DNA of 64,000 nt, taken from assembly GCF_020911925.1 (NCBI RefSeq), contig NZ_CP087134.1:1426001-1490000 (forward strand), read 5' to 3'. Both the position numbers and the translations under genes were made by a program. Positions 9,499-14,277 of the stretch are shown here, one piece after another. The notes below the pieces were generated by a model, which made no database searches, was not told the DNA's origin, and saw nothing but the letters and a program-made list of their open reading frames with translations. The stretch comes from Flavobacterium cupriresistens. Lineage in GTDB: Bacteria > Bacteroidota > Bacteroidia > Flavobacteriales > Flavobacteriaceae. Numbering within the stretch: position 1 is the first letter of the stretch; each line of letters opens with the position of its first letter.

Positions 9499-9813
9499 TT
9501 AATACGCTTTCATTTTTTCGAAAGTAGTAGTAAGTGATTTTTTAATTTTAGCAGAGGCACCCTGAAAGGCTTTTTCGATACTCTCGGCATGTTCTGTAAC
9601 GGTAACCGGTTGCAATTTTGCGGTACGAACTTCAATAACACATTTTTTGTCGTGCAGACTGAATTTCTCACCATTTTCGTCTCCGAAATGTACTTCTATG
9701 CGTGTAATTTTGTCTTCAAAACGAGCCAGTGTTTTTTCTAATTCACCAGAAAAATAAGCCTCTAATCTTTCGTGTCCCTCAATGTTTTTGTCGGTGTTAA
9801 TTTGAATTTTCAT
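9499..9813 (-). CDS. hpf: Ribosome hibernation promoting factor (HPF/RaiA family, short form)
   Basis: A 104-residue protein of the sigma-54 modulation/HPF fold: MKIQINTDKNIEGHERLEAYFSGELEKTL, then KITRIEVHFGDENG and the helix ESIEKAFQGASAKIKKSL. Short-form HPF/RaiA proteins bind the 30S decoding region and inactivate or store ribosomes in stationary phase. It lacks the C-terminal dimerisation domain of long HPF. It has its own terminator and stands apart from rpoN-type genes, where hpf is often found in other phyla. Confidence 0.88.
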   Translation of the reverse strand: MKIQINTDKNIEGHERLEAYFSGELEKTLARFEDKITRIEVHFGDENGEKFSLHDKKCVIEVRTAKLQPVTVTEHAESIEKAFQGASAKIKKSLTTTFEKMKAY

Positions 9814-10087
9814 ATTACTTATTGTTTATATGTTTAATACTTGATTGGTTTAAATCTTGTTTCTCAAAGCTATTATTTTATCAATTAAAAAACAATTGAG
9901 TTAATAAAACATTAAGATTTTTTTTGAGATTTTACGCCTCGTTTGTCAATTCCAACGCAGGAGGAATCACATGCGAAGTTCCGCAGCCGTAATCAGACTA
10001 AATTGTAAGAAGCCCATGTAAGTAGCGTAATTTTTTTGGGTATATTAGCAATCTTAAATTTTAAGGATCTGAATTCGAAAAACTTCT

Positions 10088-10165
10088 ACCTGTATAGTAT
10101 GCTGGTGGTATTGGAAACAACTGCAACGCCAACTTAACAGCGTAGGACAGCTAAGCTATGCGGGT
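10088..10165 (+). ncRNA. Candidate structured RNA, copy 1
   Basis: A ten-pair closing stem forms between ACCTGTATAG (10088-10097) and CTATGCGGGT (10156-10165). Inside are a TTG-GAAA-CAA tetraloop hairpin (10110-10119) and an ACGC/GCGT hairpin (10126-10129 with 10140-10143). The core GGTATTGGAAACAACTG and TAGGACA are shared with copy 2. Compared with copy 2, two stem pairs change on both sides (C-G to U-A, A-U to G-C) and three change on one side while still pairing. I see this as a conserved RNA. The strand is inferred from the downstream gene and the homologous leader. Confidence 0.65.
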
Positions 10166-10349
10166 TTTATATTTTATGCTTTGTCTTCTTTGCTAATTTG
10201 ATTTTCTATAGTCAGAAAGAGAAACGAGGAATCGTCATAGACAGTTATAAAATAGCGGAAGTCAGAAGTTAAGGAAATTACATATATTTTTCTTGTTTTC
10301 ATATGTTTACAATCCTAAATGTAAAGATTATGATTCAGAAAAAAAAATT

Positions 10350-10425
10350 ACTCGTGTGGTATGGTGGCGGTATTGGAAACAACTGTAACGCTCTTTACAG
10401 CGTAGGACATCTAAGCCATACGAGT
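10350..10425 (+). ncRNA. Candidate structured RNA, copy 2
   Basis: The closing stem is ACTCGTGTGG (10350-10359) with CCATACGAGT (10416-10425), followed by TTTTATTATTT. The inner hairpins are TTG-GAAA-CAA (10373-10382) and ACGCT-cuuuac-AGCGT (10388-10403). The element is about 260 bp after copy 1 and ends 26 bp before the start codon of the 77-residue protein. It may therefore be a leader of that gene or a separate small RNA. A short frame of 36 codons (10330-10440) also crosses it, but copy 1 has a 2-base indel and stops in that frame, so the coding reading is weaker. The RNA family is not one I can name; Flavo-1 is a possibility I could not test. Confidence 0.65.
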
Positions 10426-10451
10426 TTTATTATTTCCTAAATGTAAAAATT

Positions 10452-10685
10452 ATGAGTACAAACACCCTTTCGAAAGAAACAGAATTAAGATTAATTGATT
10501 TCTTTAATGAATCAATTGATCTTAAAAGTATGGCTAAAACAATTCGTCAAGTAAATTATCTGCTTACCTTAAATGTTATGCGAGAAAATGAATCCTTAGA
10601 GTCGGATCAAACAAATCTCGACGACAGTTTCTACTGGCTGAATAAATTAGCTGAGGTTCTGGATCCTTATCTGGATGTTGAATGA
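10452..10685 (+). CDS. Small acidic all-alpha protein, paralogue of 37527-37757
   Basis: A 77-residue protein without signal peptide or membrane segment. Its conserved core is MAKTIRxxNYL followed by TNLxDxFYWLNxLxEVLDPYL. It matches the protein at 37527-37757 at about 60 percent of aligned positions by eye. I do not recognise the family. Its start ATG follows CCTAAATGTAAAAATTATGA. Almost the same string stands at 10314-10333 before RNA copy 2, so the leader is duplicated. A clear terminator follows at 10694-10724. Confidence 0.8.
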   Translation: MSTNTLSKETELRLIDFFNESIDLKSMAKTIRQVNYLLTLNVMRENESLESDQTNLDDSFYWLNKLAEVLDPYLDVE

Positions 10686-10693
10686 TTCAATGT

Positions 10694-10724
10694 AAAAAAG
10701 CCACTGAGAAAGTGGCTTTTTTTG
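10694..10724 (+). terminator. Rho-independent terminator
   Basis: AAAAGCCACT-gagaa-AGTGGCTTTTTTT, 9 bp after the stop of the 77-residue protein. The A-rich 5' flank means it may also end the converging helicase transcript. Confidence 0.9.
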
Positions 10725-10744: not shown

Positions 10745-13700
10745 TTAGTCTATTGACATTTTTGCAGATTCTTTCCAAAGATAATTTGGTATAGGCTCAT
10801 TTAGCTCCCATTTGATATTCATTGGTTTTGAACCTTCGGTTTCTTTAAATATACCTTCTCCGATAAATACATATCCTAGTGCATTCCCATTTTCATCTTT
10901 ACCTTTTTCTCTGATAAAAAGTAATATTTTTTTATTGATTTTAAGGTGTTTTATATAGGAAGCTCCTTTTGTCGTTTCTGGTCCATAAGCATTATGTGAT
11001 TGCCAATGAAATAATGTTTCACTTATTGCATAGTCATCATACATAGTTGTGGGAGAAAAATTTTCCTCGGATTTAATTAAATTAATAAAGAGGACTTCTG
11101 TATTTAAGCTTTTATTTTCTGCTGCACCTTCTCTGTTAGATGATTTTTTATTAAATGTACTTAAACGGAAAGCTGTTAGTATTTGATCTCTTGTATATCT
11201 AGCGTGCAATTTTAGTGGTTGATTGTAGGGTAATTCAATCTCAATTTCTTTAAATCCAATTTTATCAATTAATATCTCTAAAACTTCTATAATTTCATTA
11301 GTAAGAGTTTTGTTTTTGCCAATTTGAATTATACTTTTCTCTAAAGATTCGAATCCTGCAGCGCTTTGCCATACATCATAATGTAGCATTAATAGCATGG
11401 TTTTTTGATTTTCGTCGAAATCATCAATTTTAATGTTAAAGCCTTTTTTAGCAATCAACAAGATGAAATTGAAATAGCTAGTAGAATTGGTAGAAAACCA
11501 CTTGTTTTTAATTGCTGAATATATTTGCTTTTCATTTATGTTTTCAAAATCATCAATTACTCCCGCTCGATAGCATAGTCTTGACCAGTTGTCTTTTTTA
11601 TATATTGTTTCAATAGGAATATGATAAACTTCAATAAAATTGCTTAAGGTTAAAGGCAAATTAGTTTGATGTTTAAAATTTACGATTTTAGTTAAAAGTT
11701 GATTTACATTTAATGATGTTGCTTTTCTAATATTCTCTAGAATTATTTCTTTGGTTTTTTTCTCTAAAATAATTGAGCAACCCAATGGTAAATGTGGGAA
11801 GTCATCTTCAATTTCTTTTTGAACAGAAGTAGTTGTTTTTCCAATTAAGGCTCTAAACTTATTTTCAAAATCATATTCTGGTCTTGCATTTCCAACAAAA
11901 TCTAAAACTGTTAGACAATCTTTTCCTTCAGACAATCTTAAACCACGACCTAATTGTTGTAGAAAAACAGTTAAGCTTTCGGTTGGTCTTAAAAATAAGA
12001 CGGTATCAATTTCAGGAATATCTACACCTTCATTAAAAATATCAACGACAAATAAATAATTGAATTCTTTGTTCTTGAACTTTTCTCTAATCGTATTTCG
12101 TTCTTTAGAATTTTTGGAGGTTAAAGATGCTGCTTTTAAACCTGCCAAATTGAATTTTTCAGACATAAAATTAGCATGCTCAATAGTCACACAAAAACCA
12201 ATAGCTCGAACATCATTTATGTCATTTGTGTACTTTTTAAGATTGTCGATTATTTGTCCAACGCGAATATTGTTTTTGGTATATAAACTGGTCAATTCAC
12301 TTGCTAAATATTTACCTTTCTCCCATTTGACATTACTTAAATCAATACTATCGGTTATTCCAAAATACTGAAAAGGAGTTAATAGGTTCTTGTTTAATGC
12401 CTCTGGGAGCCTAATTTCAGCAGCAATACGATTACAGAAATCTTTTAATATGTCAGCCCCGTCCATTCTTTCAGGTGTGGCAGTCAAACCTAATAGTATT
12501 TTAGGTTTGAAATAATTTATAATTGGTCTATAAGTTTTAGCTTCAATATGGTGAACTTCGTCAATAATAATAAAATCATAATATTCAGGAGAAAGGTTAA
12601 TGTTTTCAAGCCTGTTGTTCAAGGTTTGAATTGAAGCAAAAACATATTCGTTAGAACTAGGTTCAAGACCATCTACCCATAAATCACCAAAATTATGATC
12701 TTTTAAAATGCCTTGAAAAGCTGTTTTTGCTTGTTGTAAAATTTCTTTTCTATGAGCGACAAAAAGTAATTTAGATGATTGGTTATTCTTTCTGAAATTT
12801 TTATAATCAAATGCTGAAATAACTGTTTTTCCTGTTCCAGTTGCAGCAACTAAAAGATTTTTATATCTATTATGAACTAATCTTTCAACTTCTAATTTTT
12901 CAAGTATTTCACTTTGATAATTATAAGGTTTAACATCGAAATAAGATGTTGTAAAAGTATTTTCTTTCGAGATTTTTCCTTGTTTTAGAGCGTCAACTAA
13001 TTTTACAGAATGAATATTTTGATCGTATAATTCAAATTCTGAGTTTTCCCAATACGATTCAAACGTTTTTCTAAATTTATCAATAATATGTCCAACTTCT
13101 TTGGTTGTTATTTTTAAATTCCATTCTAATCCGTCTGTTAGCGCTGAACGAGAAAAATTAGAGGAGCCGATATAGCCTGTGTGAAATCCTGAATTTCTTT
13201 GGAATAAATATGCTTTTGCATGTAATCTTTCGTTACCAGTATTATATGAAATTTTCACTTCAGTATTTTTTAAAGAAGCTAAAAGTTCAACGGCTTTTGA
13301 ATCTGTTGCACCGATATAAGTAGTTGTAATGACTCTAAGTTTTCCTCCTCTTTCTGTGAATTCTCTTAATTCACGCTCTAGAATTCTAATTCCTTTCCAT
13401 TTTATAAAAGAAACTAATAGATCAATTTTATCTGAAGATAATATCTCTTTACGCAATTCACTTTCTAAAGTTGTTCCTGAATTTCCTCCCGTAAAGAGTT
13501 CACTATGAATAAGTCTTGTATAAGGTGTGATTTCTTTTAAGTGTAGATCTAAGTCAGTAAAATGAGTATCAACTTTTGTAAAAACAGCTTTCAATATTTT
13601 ACCTTCTGTTTCAATTAAATCATCCTCAAATTCTTCTTTCTTTAATTCTTCTTTTAAAAGTAAGATTATTTTGTTGGCAATTTCAATTTGAGTTTCAACA

Positions 13701-13885
13701 ATATTTTCGCCTTTTATCAGTGTAAAAGCATGTTTTATTGTTTTACCAATATGCTGTGATAATATTTGAGATGCTTCAGCTTTGTCTATTGAAACTTTTT
13801 TTATTTGGAAAGTATCTTTGTTTAGTTCATTTATTTTATAGGTTATCAGTTTGGTAACTAATTCTTCATATAATCCTTGGTTCAT
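10745..13885 (-). CDS. PLD-nuclease / superfamily II helicase / DUF3427 protein
   Basis: A 1046-residue multidomain protein. Residues about 125-260 form a phospholipase-D-like nuclease domain with HAKAYLF (H about 222) and GSSNFSRSAL. Residues about 330-700 form an SF2 helicase: Walker A ATGTGKT (about 346-352), IIDEVHH (about 440), LGLTATPERMDG and the arginine-finger motif QQLGRGLR (about 643). The C-terminal part (about 880-1046) matches the DUF3427 type, starting near STFNKKSSNREGA. Such proteins combine DNA translocation with strand cleavage and recur in defence neighbourhoods. The gene overlaps the upstream Nudix gene by four bases (ATGA), so the two are translated together. The role as antiphage or DNA-repair module is inferred. 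Confidence 0.88.
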   Translation of the reverse strand: MNQGLYEELVTKLITYKINELNKDTFQIKKVSIDKAEASQILSQHIGKTIKHAFTLIKGENIVETQIEIANKIILLLKEELKKEEFEDDLIETEGKILKAVFTKVDTHFTDLDLHLKEITPYTRLIHSELFTGGNSGTTLESELRKEILSSDKIDLLVSFIKWKGIRILERELREFTERGGKLRVITTTYIGATDSKAVELLASLKNTEVKISYNTGNERLHAKAYLFQRNSGFHTGYIGSSNFSRSALTDGLEWNLKITTKEVGHIIDKFRKTFESYWENSEFELYDQNIHSVKLVDALKQGKISKENTFTTSYFDVKPYNYQSEILEKLEVERLVHNRYKNLLVAATGTGKTVISAFDYKNFRKNNQSSKLLFVAHRKEILQQAKTAFQGILKDHNFGDLWVDGLEPSSNEYVFASIQTLNNRLENINLSPEYYDFIIIDEVHHIEAKTYRPIINYFKPKILLGLTATPERMDGADILKDFCNRIAAEIRLPEALNKNLLTPFQYFGITDSIDLSNVKWEKGKYLASELTSLYTKNNIRVGQIIDNLKKYTNDINDVRAIGFCVTIEHANFMSEKFNLAGLKAASLTSKNSKERNTIREKFKNKEFNYLFVVDIFNEGVDIPEIDTVLFLRPTESLTVFLQQLGRGLRLSEGKDCLTVLDFVGNARPEYDFENKFRALIGKTTTSVQKEIEDDFPHLPLGCSIILEKKTKEIILENIRKATSLNVNQLLTKIVNFKHQTNLPLTLSNFIEVYHIPIETIYKKDNWSRLCYRAGVIDDFENINEKQIYSAIKNKWFSTNSTSYFNFILLIAKKGFNIKIDDFDENQKTMLLMLHYDVWQSAAGFESLEKSIIQIGKNKTLTNEIIEVLEILIDKIGFKEIEIELPYNQPLKLHARYTRDQILTAFRLSTFNKKSSNREGAAENKSLNTEVLFINLIKSEENFSPTTMYDDYAISETLFHWQSHNAYGPETTKGASYIKHLKINKKILLFIREKGKDENGNALGYVFIGEGIFKETEGSKPMNIKWELNEPIPNYLWKESAKMSID

Positions 13886-14277
13886 ATTTCAAGTTTTAAA
13901 AATTCTTCAACGATTGGTATATCTGCTTCAGCCCAATCAATGTTTAATAGTTCAGATCTTTCTAATAATCTATAATCTGTGTGTTCTGCTAATTTAATAT
14001 CACCTGAAATATAACAAGCTAAAAAAGGAATTAAATTGATTTTAAAATTGCCATAATCATGAATATTATTTGATAGTTTTTGCAATATTTCAATCTCAAT
14101 ATTTATTTCCTCTTTAATTTCTCTTTTAATGCAATCAATTTCACTCTCATTAAATTCTAATTTTCCACCCGGAAATTCCCATTTTAAAGGTAATTTCATT
14201 TTTGTACTTCTCTGCGCAACTAAAATTTTTTCATTCTTTAAAATTATTGCACAAGTAACATTTATGATTTTAGACAT
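13882..14277 (-). CDS. Nudix hydrolase, MutT-like
   Basis: A 131-residue NTP pyrophosphohydrolase. The Nudix box is GGKLEFNESEIDCIKREIKE followed by EINI. It keeps G-x5-E-x7-REUxEE, with N at the last glycine position. The N-terminal VTCAIILKNEKILVAQRS and the C-terminal TDYRLLERSELLNIDWAEAD resemble MutT/CtpP-type enzymes that hydrolyse oxidised or modified (d)NTPs. Its stop overlaps the start of the PLD-helicase gene by four bases. Together they form a two-gene operon, so it probably acts on nucleotides in the same pathway. The spacer upstream (14278-14517) is AT-rich and shows no gene. Confidence 0.9.
   Translation of the reverse strand: MSKIINVTCAIILKNEKILVAQRSTKMKLPLKWEFPGGKLEFNESEIDCIKREIKEEINIEIEILQKLSNNIHDYGNFKINLIPFLACYISGDIKLAEHTDYRLLERSELLNIDWAEADIPIVEEFLKLEI

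What the first reader, a model, noticed from the sequence alone, without database searches (positions are those of the whole stretch)
10088..10425. Tandem structured RNA with compensatory base changes, apparently unnamed
Two copies (10088-10165 and 10350-10425) keep a 10-pair closing stem, a GAAA tetraloop hairpin, an ACGC/GCGT hairpin and an invariant GGTATTGGAAACAACTG core. Two stem pairs changed on both strands (C-G to U-A, A-U to G-C) and three changed by wobble, so pairing is selected. The copies differ by a 2-base indel in a loop, which argues against a protein. They lie in a row before a gene for a small protein of unknown function.
Basis: partly seen in the sequence, partly recalled or inferred. 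Interest (0 to 1): 0.75.

Follow-up and report, generated by a model that had tools for sequence, protein, structure and literature searches.

The report
Self-matching antisense RNA before small gene
The two RNAs belong to a catalogued but little-studied family; in Flavobacterium they look like antisense switches carrying a short address code that matches the start of the small gene they precede, and the code differs from copy to copy.

Summary
Both copies match Rfam RF02944 (c4-2; 66.7 and 70.7 bits, cut-off 41), and 54 related RNAs show strong covariation of the fold. What the family match alone does not tell is the target. Copy 2 sits between two direct repeats: one at the transcript's expected 5' end, one at the translation start of the next gene, a 77-aa protein of unknown function. 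Both repeats are complementary to the variable hairpin loop plus the conserved UAGGA behind it. Over 121 distinct units with 41 different loops, loop and both repeats change together (own match 7.4 and 7.3 nt; 0 of 10,000 permutations reach this), also at one orthologous site (13 loops in 39 units). This is the layout of the phage c4 and P4 CI immunity RNAs, but on solitary chromosomal genes. Most likely: a c4-type antisense RNA that blocks translation of its own 77-aa gene. That it acts in trans is favoured, weakly, by loops never being equal within a genome (0 of 161 pairs, P = 0.025). Copy 1 is an orphan RNA without a gene of its own. Expression, processing and the protein's function are untested.

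The parts
10302..10309 (+). -7 promoter-like box TATGTTTA of the copy 2 unit
   Evidence: Position. A box TANN(T/C)T(T/C)(G/A) lies within 22 nt 5' of the first target site in 99 of 119 units, 3-4 nt away in 96 of these; 9 in the control stretch before the second site. That flavobacterial promoters look so is recalled.
10313..10327 (+). First target site (a1b1-like): TCCTA + AA + TGTAAAGA, at the expected 5' end of the transcript
   Evidence: Complementary to UAGGA and loop of copy 2; duplex -14.2 kcal/mol; family-wide covariation
10330..10332 (+).
   Evidence: Frame not conserved among 121 units
10350..10427 (+). c4-2 RNA, copy 2 (main unit)
   Evidence: RF02944, 70.7 bits, cut-off 41; covariation
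10392..10399 (+). Specificity loop of copy 2, UCUUUACA, in the ACGC/GCGU hairpin
   Evidence: reverse complement of 10320-10327 (8 nt) and, over 6 nt, of 10442-10447
10403..10407 (+). Conserved UAGGA (last base of the hairpin and AGGA behind it); pairs with TCCTA of both sites
10435..10447 (+). Second target site (a2b2-like): TCCTA + AA + TGTAAA, directly before the start codon
   Evidence: Duplex with copy 2 -10.2 kcal/mol; in 116 of 121 units the match to the loop is 6 nt or more
10452..10685 (+). Putative regulated gene: acidic 77-aa protein (pI 4.29), three-helix bundle predicted, function unknown
   Evidence: no Pfam or NCBIfam match up to E 1
10700..10723 (+). Terminator-like hairpin and T run after the gene
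   Evidence: Sequence; terminator-like hairpin within 160 nt of the gene in 92 of 120 units
10088..10167 (+). c4-2 RNA, copy 1 (orphan: no 77-aa gene of its own, no second site)
   Evidence: RF02944, 66.7 bits; no 77-aa remnant found in 9801-10330 (best tblastn E 0.11)
10130..10139 (+). Specificity loop of copy 1, CAACUUAACA, different from copy 2
10041..10065 (+). Apparently decayed promoter box (TATATTAG) and first target site (TCTTA...TTAAG) before copy 1
   Evidence: loop match only 5 nt, duplex -5.6 kcal/mol

Best explanation
Copy 2 is a c4-type antisense RNA made from the leader of the very mRNA that it controls. Transcription starts at the first target site, runs through the RNA and the 77-aa gene and ends at a terminator. 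The released RNA pairs in two parts (UAGGA with UCCUA, variable loop with the 6-9 nt next to the start codon) with the second site and blocks initiation of translation; pairing with the first site gives autoregulation or early termination. The loop is an address: copies in one genome have different addresses and so need not silence each other. Copy 1 is a left-over or guard RNA of another address. Shown by sequence: fold, two-sided complementarity, its covariation, position at promoter-like box and start codon. Inferred: processing, action in trans, repression, and that the 77-aa protein must be kept low.
For: Fold covaries: 18 of 25 pairs with two-sided changes, 0/500 shuffles. Loop against own flanks: 121 units, 41 loops, mean 7.36 nt upstream (118 of 121 at least 6) and 7.29 nt downstream (116 of 121); other loops 4.37 and 4.02; 0 of 10,000 permutations, also with one unit per loop. 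Predicted duplexes, one unit per loop: cognate -13.0 (second site) and -14.5 (first), non-cognate -7.1 and -8.9 kcal/mol. Units at the same orthologous hpf site carry 13 different loops in 39. Of 148 protein pairs at least 90% identical in different genomes, 111 have different loops. The constant arm also changes with its target in some loci (UAAGA/TCTTA, UAGAG/CTCTA). In a second subfamily with a 91-aa gene (10 loci) the RNA matches an upstream site over 7-12 nt and the start codon region over 5-8 nt. Loops within a genome are never equal: 0 of 161 pairs in 23 genomes, 3.4 expected, P 0.025. Layout equals P4 seqA-CI-seqC (PMC4825925, passage) and c4 a'/b' pairing at the RBS (PMC5320573, passages).
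Against: No expression data; processing and trans action not shown. Match under 6 nt in 3 of 121 units upstream and 5 downstream. The cognate site is the single strongest of 41 for only 24 (second) and 20 (first) loops, though among the top three for 38 and 34. Address exclusivity weakened from P 0.004 (0 of 202) to 0.025 once genomes held twice or sharing a unit were merged, and predicted cross-matches are not significantly rarer within genomes (7 of 257 against 240 of 5778, P 0.21). In the 91-aa subfamily the own/other contrast at the start codon is small (own scores 11.5-20, others' mean 14.5). Copy 1 fits its own remnant site poorly. 22 of 80 gene relatives have no c4-2. Permutations ignore relatedness.
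Confidence: 0.77

Rival explanations
1. Cis-acting leader: loop and second site pair within the same transcript as a pseudoknot that hides the start codon, and the two sites compete; no free RNA.
For: Both sites lie next to the RNA on the expected transcript; covariation alone does not tell cis from trans; cross-match avoidance within genomes is not significant (P 0.21).
Against: 13 of 136 copies (merged genomes) have no gene of their own; loops within a genome are never equal (0 of 161, P 0.025), which cis pairing would not need; relatives c4 and CI act as free RNAs (PMC5320573, PMC4825925, passages).
Confidence: 0.25
2. Selfish or addiction cassette: the 77-aa protein is harmful, the RNA is its antitoxin, and a cell already making the same address is immune to an incoming copy; orphan copies are kept immunity. 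(Compatible with the best explanation.)
For: Same kind of layout as phage immunity regions; some gene relatives have a divergent Cro/CI-like HTH gene instead; orphan and main addresses swapped between L024 and L042 at the same site; loops different within genomes.
Against: Harm untested; protein is acidic and no membrane peptide, unlike usual type I toxins (the usual case is recalled). 22 of 23 orphans match some target elsewhere by 7 nt (count before merging genomes), but chance matches are frequent, so this is not distinctive; window copy 1 has none.
Confidence: 0.32
3. The RNA is a metabolite-sensing leader (riboswitch) and the complementarity is part of its expression platform.
For: Conserved GAAA hairpin and junction before a gene.
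Against: Orphan copies and two target sites with a changing address are not explained.
Confidence: 0.03
4. A short leader peptide of about 36 codons, not an RNA.
For: Open frame from ATG 10330.
Against: Frame not conserved, 17 of 121 units lack an ATG, loop lengths vary by single bases; compensatory pairs.
Confidence: 0.01

Closest known systems
Rfam RF02944 c4-2 RNA (clan CL00128)
   Same: Both copies score far above the family cut-off over the whole model.
   Different: Nothing structural; target sites, 77-aa gene and loop code are outside the 79-position model. Whether the describing paper (Weinberg et al. 2017, recalled; not held) noted them could not be checked.
c4 antisense RNA of phages P1/P7 (RF01695)
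   Same: About 77-nt RNA from a longer transcript, three stem-loops, two unpaired elements complementary to the start region of a target mRNA; four changed bases restrict cross-reaction (PMC5320573, passages). Target copies on both sides of P1 c4: recalled.
   Different: Chromosomal, no phage genes seen; variable element is next to the start codon and the constant one upstream, the reverse of c4 as described in PMC5320573; gene of unknown function, not icd/ant.
CI RNA of satellite phage P4
   Same: Antisense RNA cut from a leader, complementary to seqA upstream and seqC downstream of itself (PMC4825925, passage).
   Different: P4 RNA controls replication genes by transcription termination in a phage; here one small gene, many specificities, mode of block unknown.
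C4-like Group 1 sRNAs of Acinetobacter baumannii
   Same: Many c4-type RNAs with differing specificity loops in one genome (PMC5320573, passages).
   Different: In the passages seen their targets are open; here each RNA's likely target is read off next to it and covaries with it.

Membership tests
RF02944 c4-2 RNA | Full-length match above the gathering score (41 bits) | tested here: met
   70.7 and 66.7 bits, model 1-79
RF02944 c4-2 RNA | Consensus fold kept with compensatory changes | tested here: met
   97.5% of cells paired, 18 of 25 pairs with both sides changed, 54 sequences
c4 antisense RNA (P1/P7) | Score against RF01695 | tested here: inconclusive
   The scan keeps only the best family of a clan, and that was c4-2
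c4 antisense RNA (P1/P7) | Two unpaired elements complementary to the target at the start site of the downstream gene | tested here: met
c4 antisense RNA (P1/P7) | Release from the leader by RNase P | not testable with these tools
   No RNA data
c4 antisense RNA (P1/P7) | Phage or prophage immunity region with icd/ant | tested here: not met
   77-aa gene without match in IMG/VR, phage and plasmid records; exact RNA core pattern 0 in IMG/VR; most units between recurring chromosomal genes
P4 CI RNA | Complementary sites upstream and downstream of the RNA | tested here: met
P4 CI RNA | Acts by transcription termination | not testable with these tools
   No RNA data
Type I toxin-antitoxin | Antisense RNA against the toxin mRNA | tested here: inconclusive
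   Antisense complementarity met; that the protein is a toxin is unknown
Type I toxin-antitoxin | Small hydrophobic membrane toxin (usual case, recalled) | tested here: not met
   pI 4.29, charge -8.5; three-helix bundle model
Flavo-1 (RF01705) | Match to the Rfam model | tested here: not met
   No match at gathering for the window or E<=1 for 9900-10700

The most novel reading that the evidence does not exclude
Flavobacteria carry a multi-allelic, RNA-coded self-recognition system outside phages: tiny cassettes whose growth-affecting protein is silenced by a c4-type RNA with a 6-9 nt address; addresses turn over at fixed chromosomal sites, must differ within a genome, and orphan RNAs act as immunity to foreign cassettes. 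The same protein family has a second version with a divergent Cro/CI-like gene and palindromes, so two unrelated kinds of immunity control converge on one small gene.
Probability: 0.26. Interest if true: 0.85.

Novelty: new variant of a known kind. Interest (0 to 1): 0.6.

Why it matters
It gives a catalogued RNA family a likely target and a mechanism that can be tested with one reporter. It offers dozens of naturally diversified antisense/target pairs on one scaffold, useful for learning how RNA addresses stay specific. It also suggests that phage-type immunity control has been adopted by solitary chromosomal genes in Bacteroidota, at a site (hpf-asmA) that also collects restriction-modification genes.

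Tried and rejected

Rows dropped: 4 of 148 distinct RNA hits could not be parsed; of 126 with a downstream ORF five were left out of the permutation test (one ORF of 138 aa, four odd G282 rows); 2 of 121 lacked a recognised first site in the promoter count; 5 hits unparsed in the genome tallies. In one search one 'shared' within-genome pair was the same copy seen twice (removed). In one search some genomes were held under both a name and a G handle; one search merges genomes that share an identical unit (91 to 73 genomes, 174 to 136 copies), which also drops some truly different genomes. My odds for trans action and for the novel case were lowered after that. The 91-aa subfamily is not in the 121, 136 or 174 counts. 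Copy numbers are complete only for ten genomes.

Full report
What is there. The window is part of a 5.74 Mb genome whose gene relatives are in Flavobacterium. Both match Rfam family RF02944, c4-2, over its whole length (66.7 and 70.7 bits, cut-off 41). The genome has five matches, four above the cut-off. In the genus 74 of 398 sampled genomes (own included) have a match, 71 above the cut-off, up to eight copies each; in a sample of 395 genomes of the phylum 11 have one, ten of the same genus (own included) and one of another family below the cut-off.

Fold. On 54 distinct RNAs the Rfam fold holds in 97.5% of pair cells; 18 of 25 pairs change on both sides; no shuffle in 500 equals this and partners slid by 1-3 columns pair in 25-41%.

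The gene behind it. Copy 2 is followed after 24 nt by a 77-aa gene (10452-10685). Of 123 relatives found in genome contigs the best 80 were kept; 58 of these 80 have the RNA directly upstream and 22 have none. The protein has no known domain. Of its 303 database relatives 120 were listed, the named ones nearly all hypothetical proteins of Flavobacterium. It is predicted as a three-helix bundle of moderate confidence (pLDDT 78.7) without a convincing structural relative.

The hidden layer. In the listings the RNA is flanked on both sides by nearly the same short sequence: TCCTAA, then 6-9 variable bases, then often ATTATGA. The variable bases are the reverse complement of the variable loop in the RNA's second hairpin; TCCTA is the reverse complement of the conserved TAGGA at the end of that hairpin. 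In the window, copy 2 pairs with its upstream site over 5 + 8 bases (-14.2 kcal/mol) and with the site before the start codon over 5 + 6 bases (-10.2).

Statistics. 121 distinct units with the gene carry 41 different loops. The longest perfect match of loop to own upstream flank is 7.36 nt on average (118 of 121 at least 6), to own downstream flank 7.29 (116 of 121). With flanks of units that have another loop it is 4.37 and 4.02. None of 10,000 permutations reaches the real mean, nor does any when each loop is used once. Loops overlap in sequence, so the own site is the strongest of all 41 for only 24 (second site) and 20 (first site) loops, and among the top three for 38 and 34. Relatedness is not modelled, but 13 loops occur at the same orthologous site (39 units), and 111 of 148 pairs of proteins at least 90% identical in different genomes have different loops: the code changes faster than the protein. 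The constant arm changes with its target in some loci too.

Where transcription starts. A TAnnTTTG-like box lies shortly before the upstream site in 99 of 119 units, 3-4 nt away in 96 of them, against 9 in a control stretch before the second site. So the first site is the expected 5' end of the transcript, and the RNA most likely comes from the leader of the gene's own mRNA. That last step is inference.

A second subfamily. Ten loci, one in this genome at G000:C1:887717, have a longer loop and a 91-aa gene (25 relatives). There the RNA matches an upstream site over 7-12 nt and the start codon region over 5-8 nt (for example TGACTAAA in genes starting MTK, TGCAAAA in genes starting MQK). The contrast to other loci's sites is clear upstream and small at the start codon. 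The two proteins are not shown to be homologous.

Cis or trans. After merging genomes held twice or sharing an identical unit, 136 copies in 73 genomes remain; 23 genomes hold two or more. None of 161 within-genome pairs has the same loop; 3.4 are expected (P 0.025; before merging 0 of 202, P 0.0042). Predicted cross-matches are not significantly fewer within genomes (7 of 257 against 240 of 5778, P 0.21). 16 of the 136 copies failed my rule for a gene behind them: 13 have no gene of their own, two a damaged one, one a gene that the rule missed. These points lean towards free RNAs acting in trans, as c4 and CI do, without proving it.

Copy 1 of the window is such an orphan: decayed box and first site (5-nt match), no second site, no trace of a gene of its own. 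Its loop differs from that of copy 2 and it is predicted to bind copy 2's start-codon site less well (-8.0 against -10.2 kcal/mol). At site 2, L024 and L042 carry the same two addresses with orphan and main role swapped, which suits either replaced cassettes or retained immunity.

Surroundings. 43 of the 58 RNA-bearing units lie behind an hpf-like gene (S30AE domain in the representative) and 32 of these 43 have restriction-modification genes further on (one representative per cluster typed); in the window this is a type IV methyl-directed restriction enzyme and a NUDIX protein. None of nine units at site 2 has them, so restriction-modification seems to belong to the site, not to the unit. Among the 22 gene relatives without c4-2, seven have a divergent 76-aa gene just upstream; the three tested are Cro/CI-type HTH proteins, and palindromes lie between in several.

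Comparison. P4 CI RNA pairs with seqA and seqC on either side of itself (PMC4825925, passage); c4 of P1/P7 pairs through a' and b' at the start region and four changed bases restrict cross-reaction (PMC5320573, passages). The present units look as if they work like these. They differ in lying on the chromosome without phage genes, in having the variable element next to the start codon, and in the number of addresses. The RNA itself is a member of a named family; the describing paper was not held, and one search found no other paper in the held library that names the family. Hence: new variant of a known kind.

Noticed in passing
L067, L079, L083, L087, L090, L096, L097 upstream of the 77-aa homologue: Gene relatives without c4-2 have a divergent 76-aa gene, Cro/CI-type HTH in the three tested, and palindromes in between in several: a second, protein-based control of the same gene family.
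   Followed up: partly
window 10745-14277 (-): Type IV methyl-directed restriction enzyme (PADLOC PDLC03659, E 8e-230) beside a NUDIX protein matching PDC-S07; part of a restriction-modification hotspot between hpf-like and AsmA-like genes in many Flavobacterium.
   Followed up: partly
G000:C1:887717-887796 and 888401-888478 (L015, L019): Second c4-2 subfamily in the same genome, before a 91-aa gene, with an RNA that matches the start codon region; the second copy is below the cut-off and without such a gene.
   Followed up: partly
L200 (1503), L116 (806): Mixed units: the RNA loop does not fit its upstream site (L116 fits only the downstream one and has a damaged gene), as if parts had recombined.
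   Followed up: no
L161, L169, L171, L175 (G282:C9): A cluster of four divergent c4-2 copies with long loops, three of them before 82-88 aa genes of another kind.
   Followed up: no
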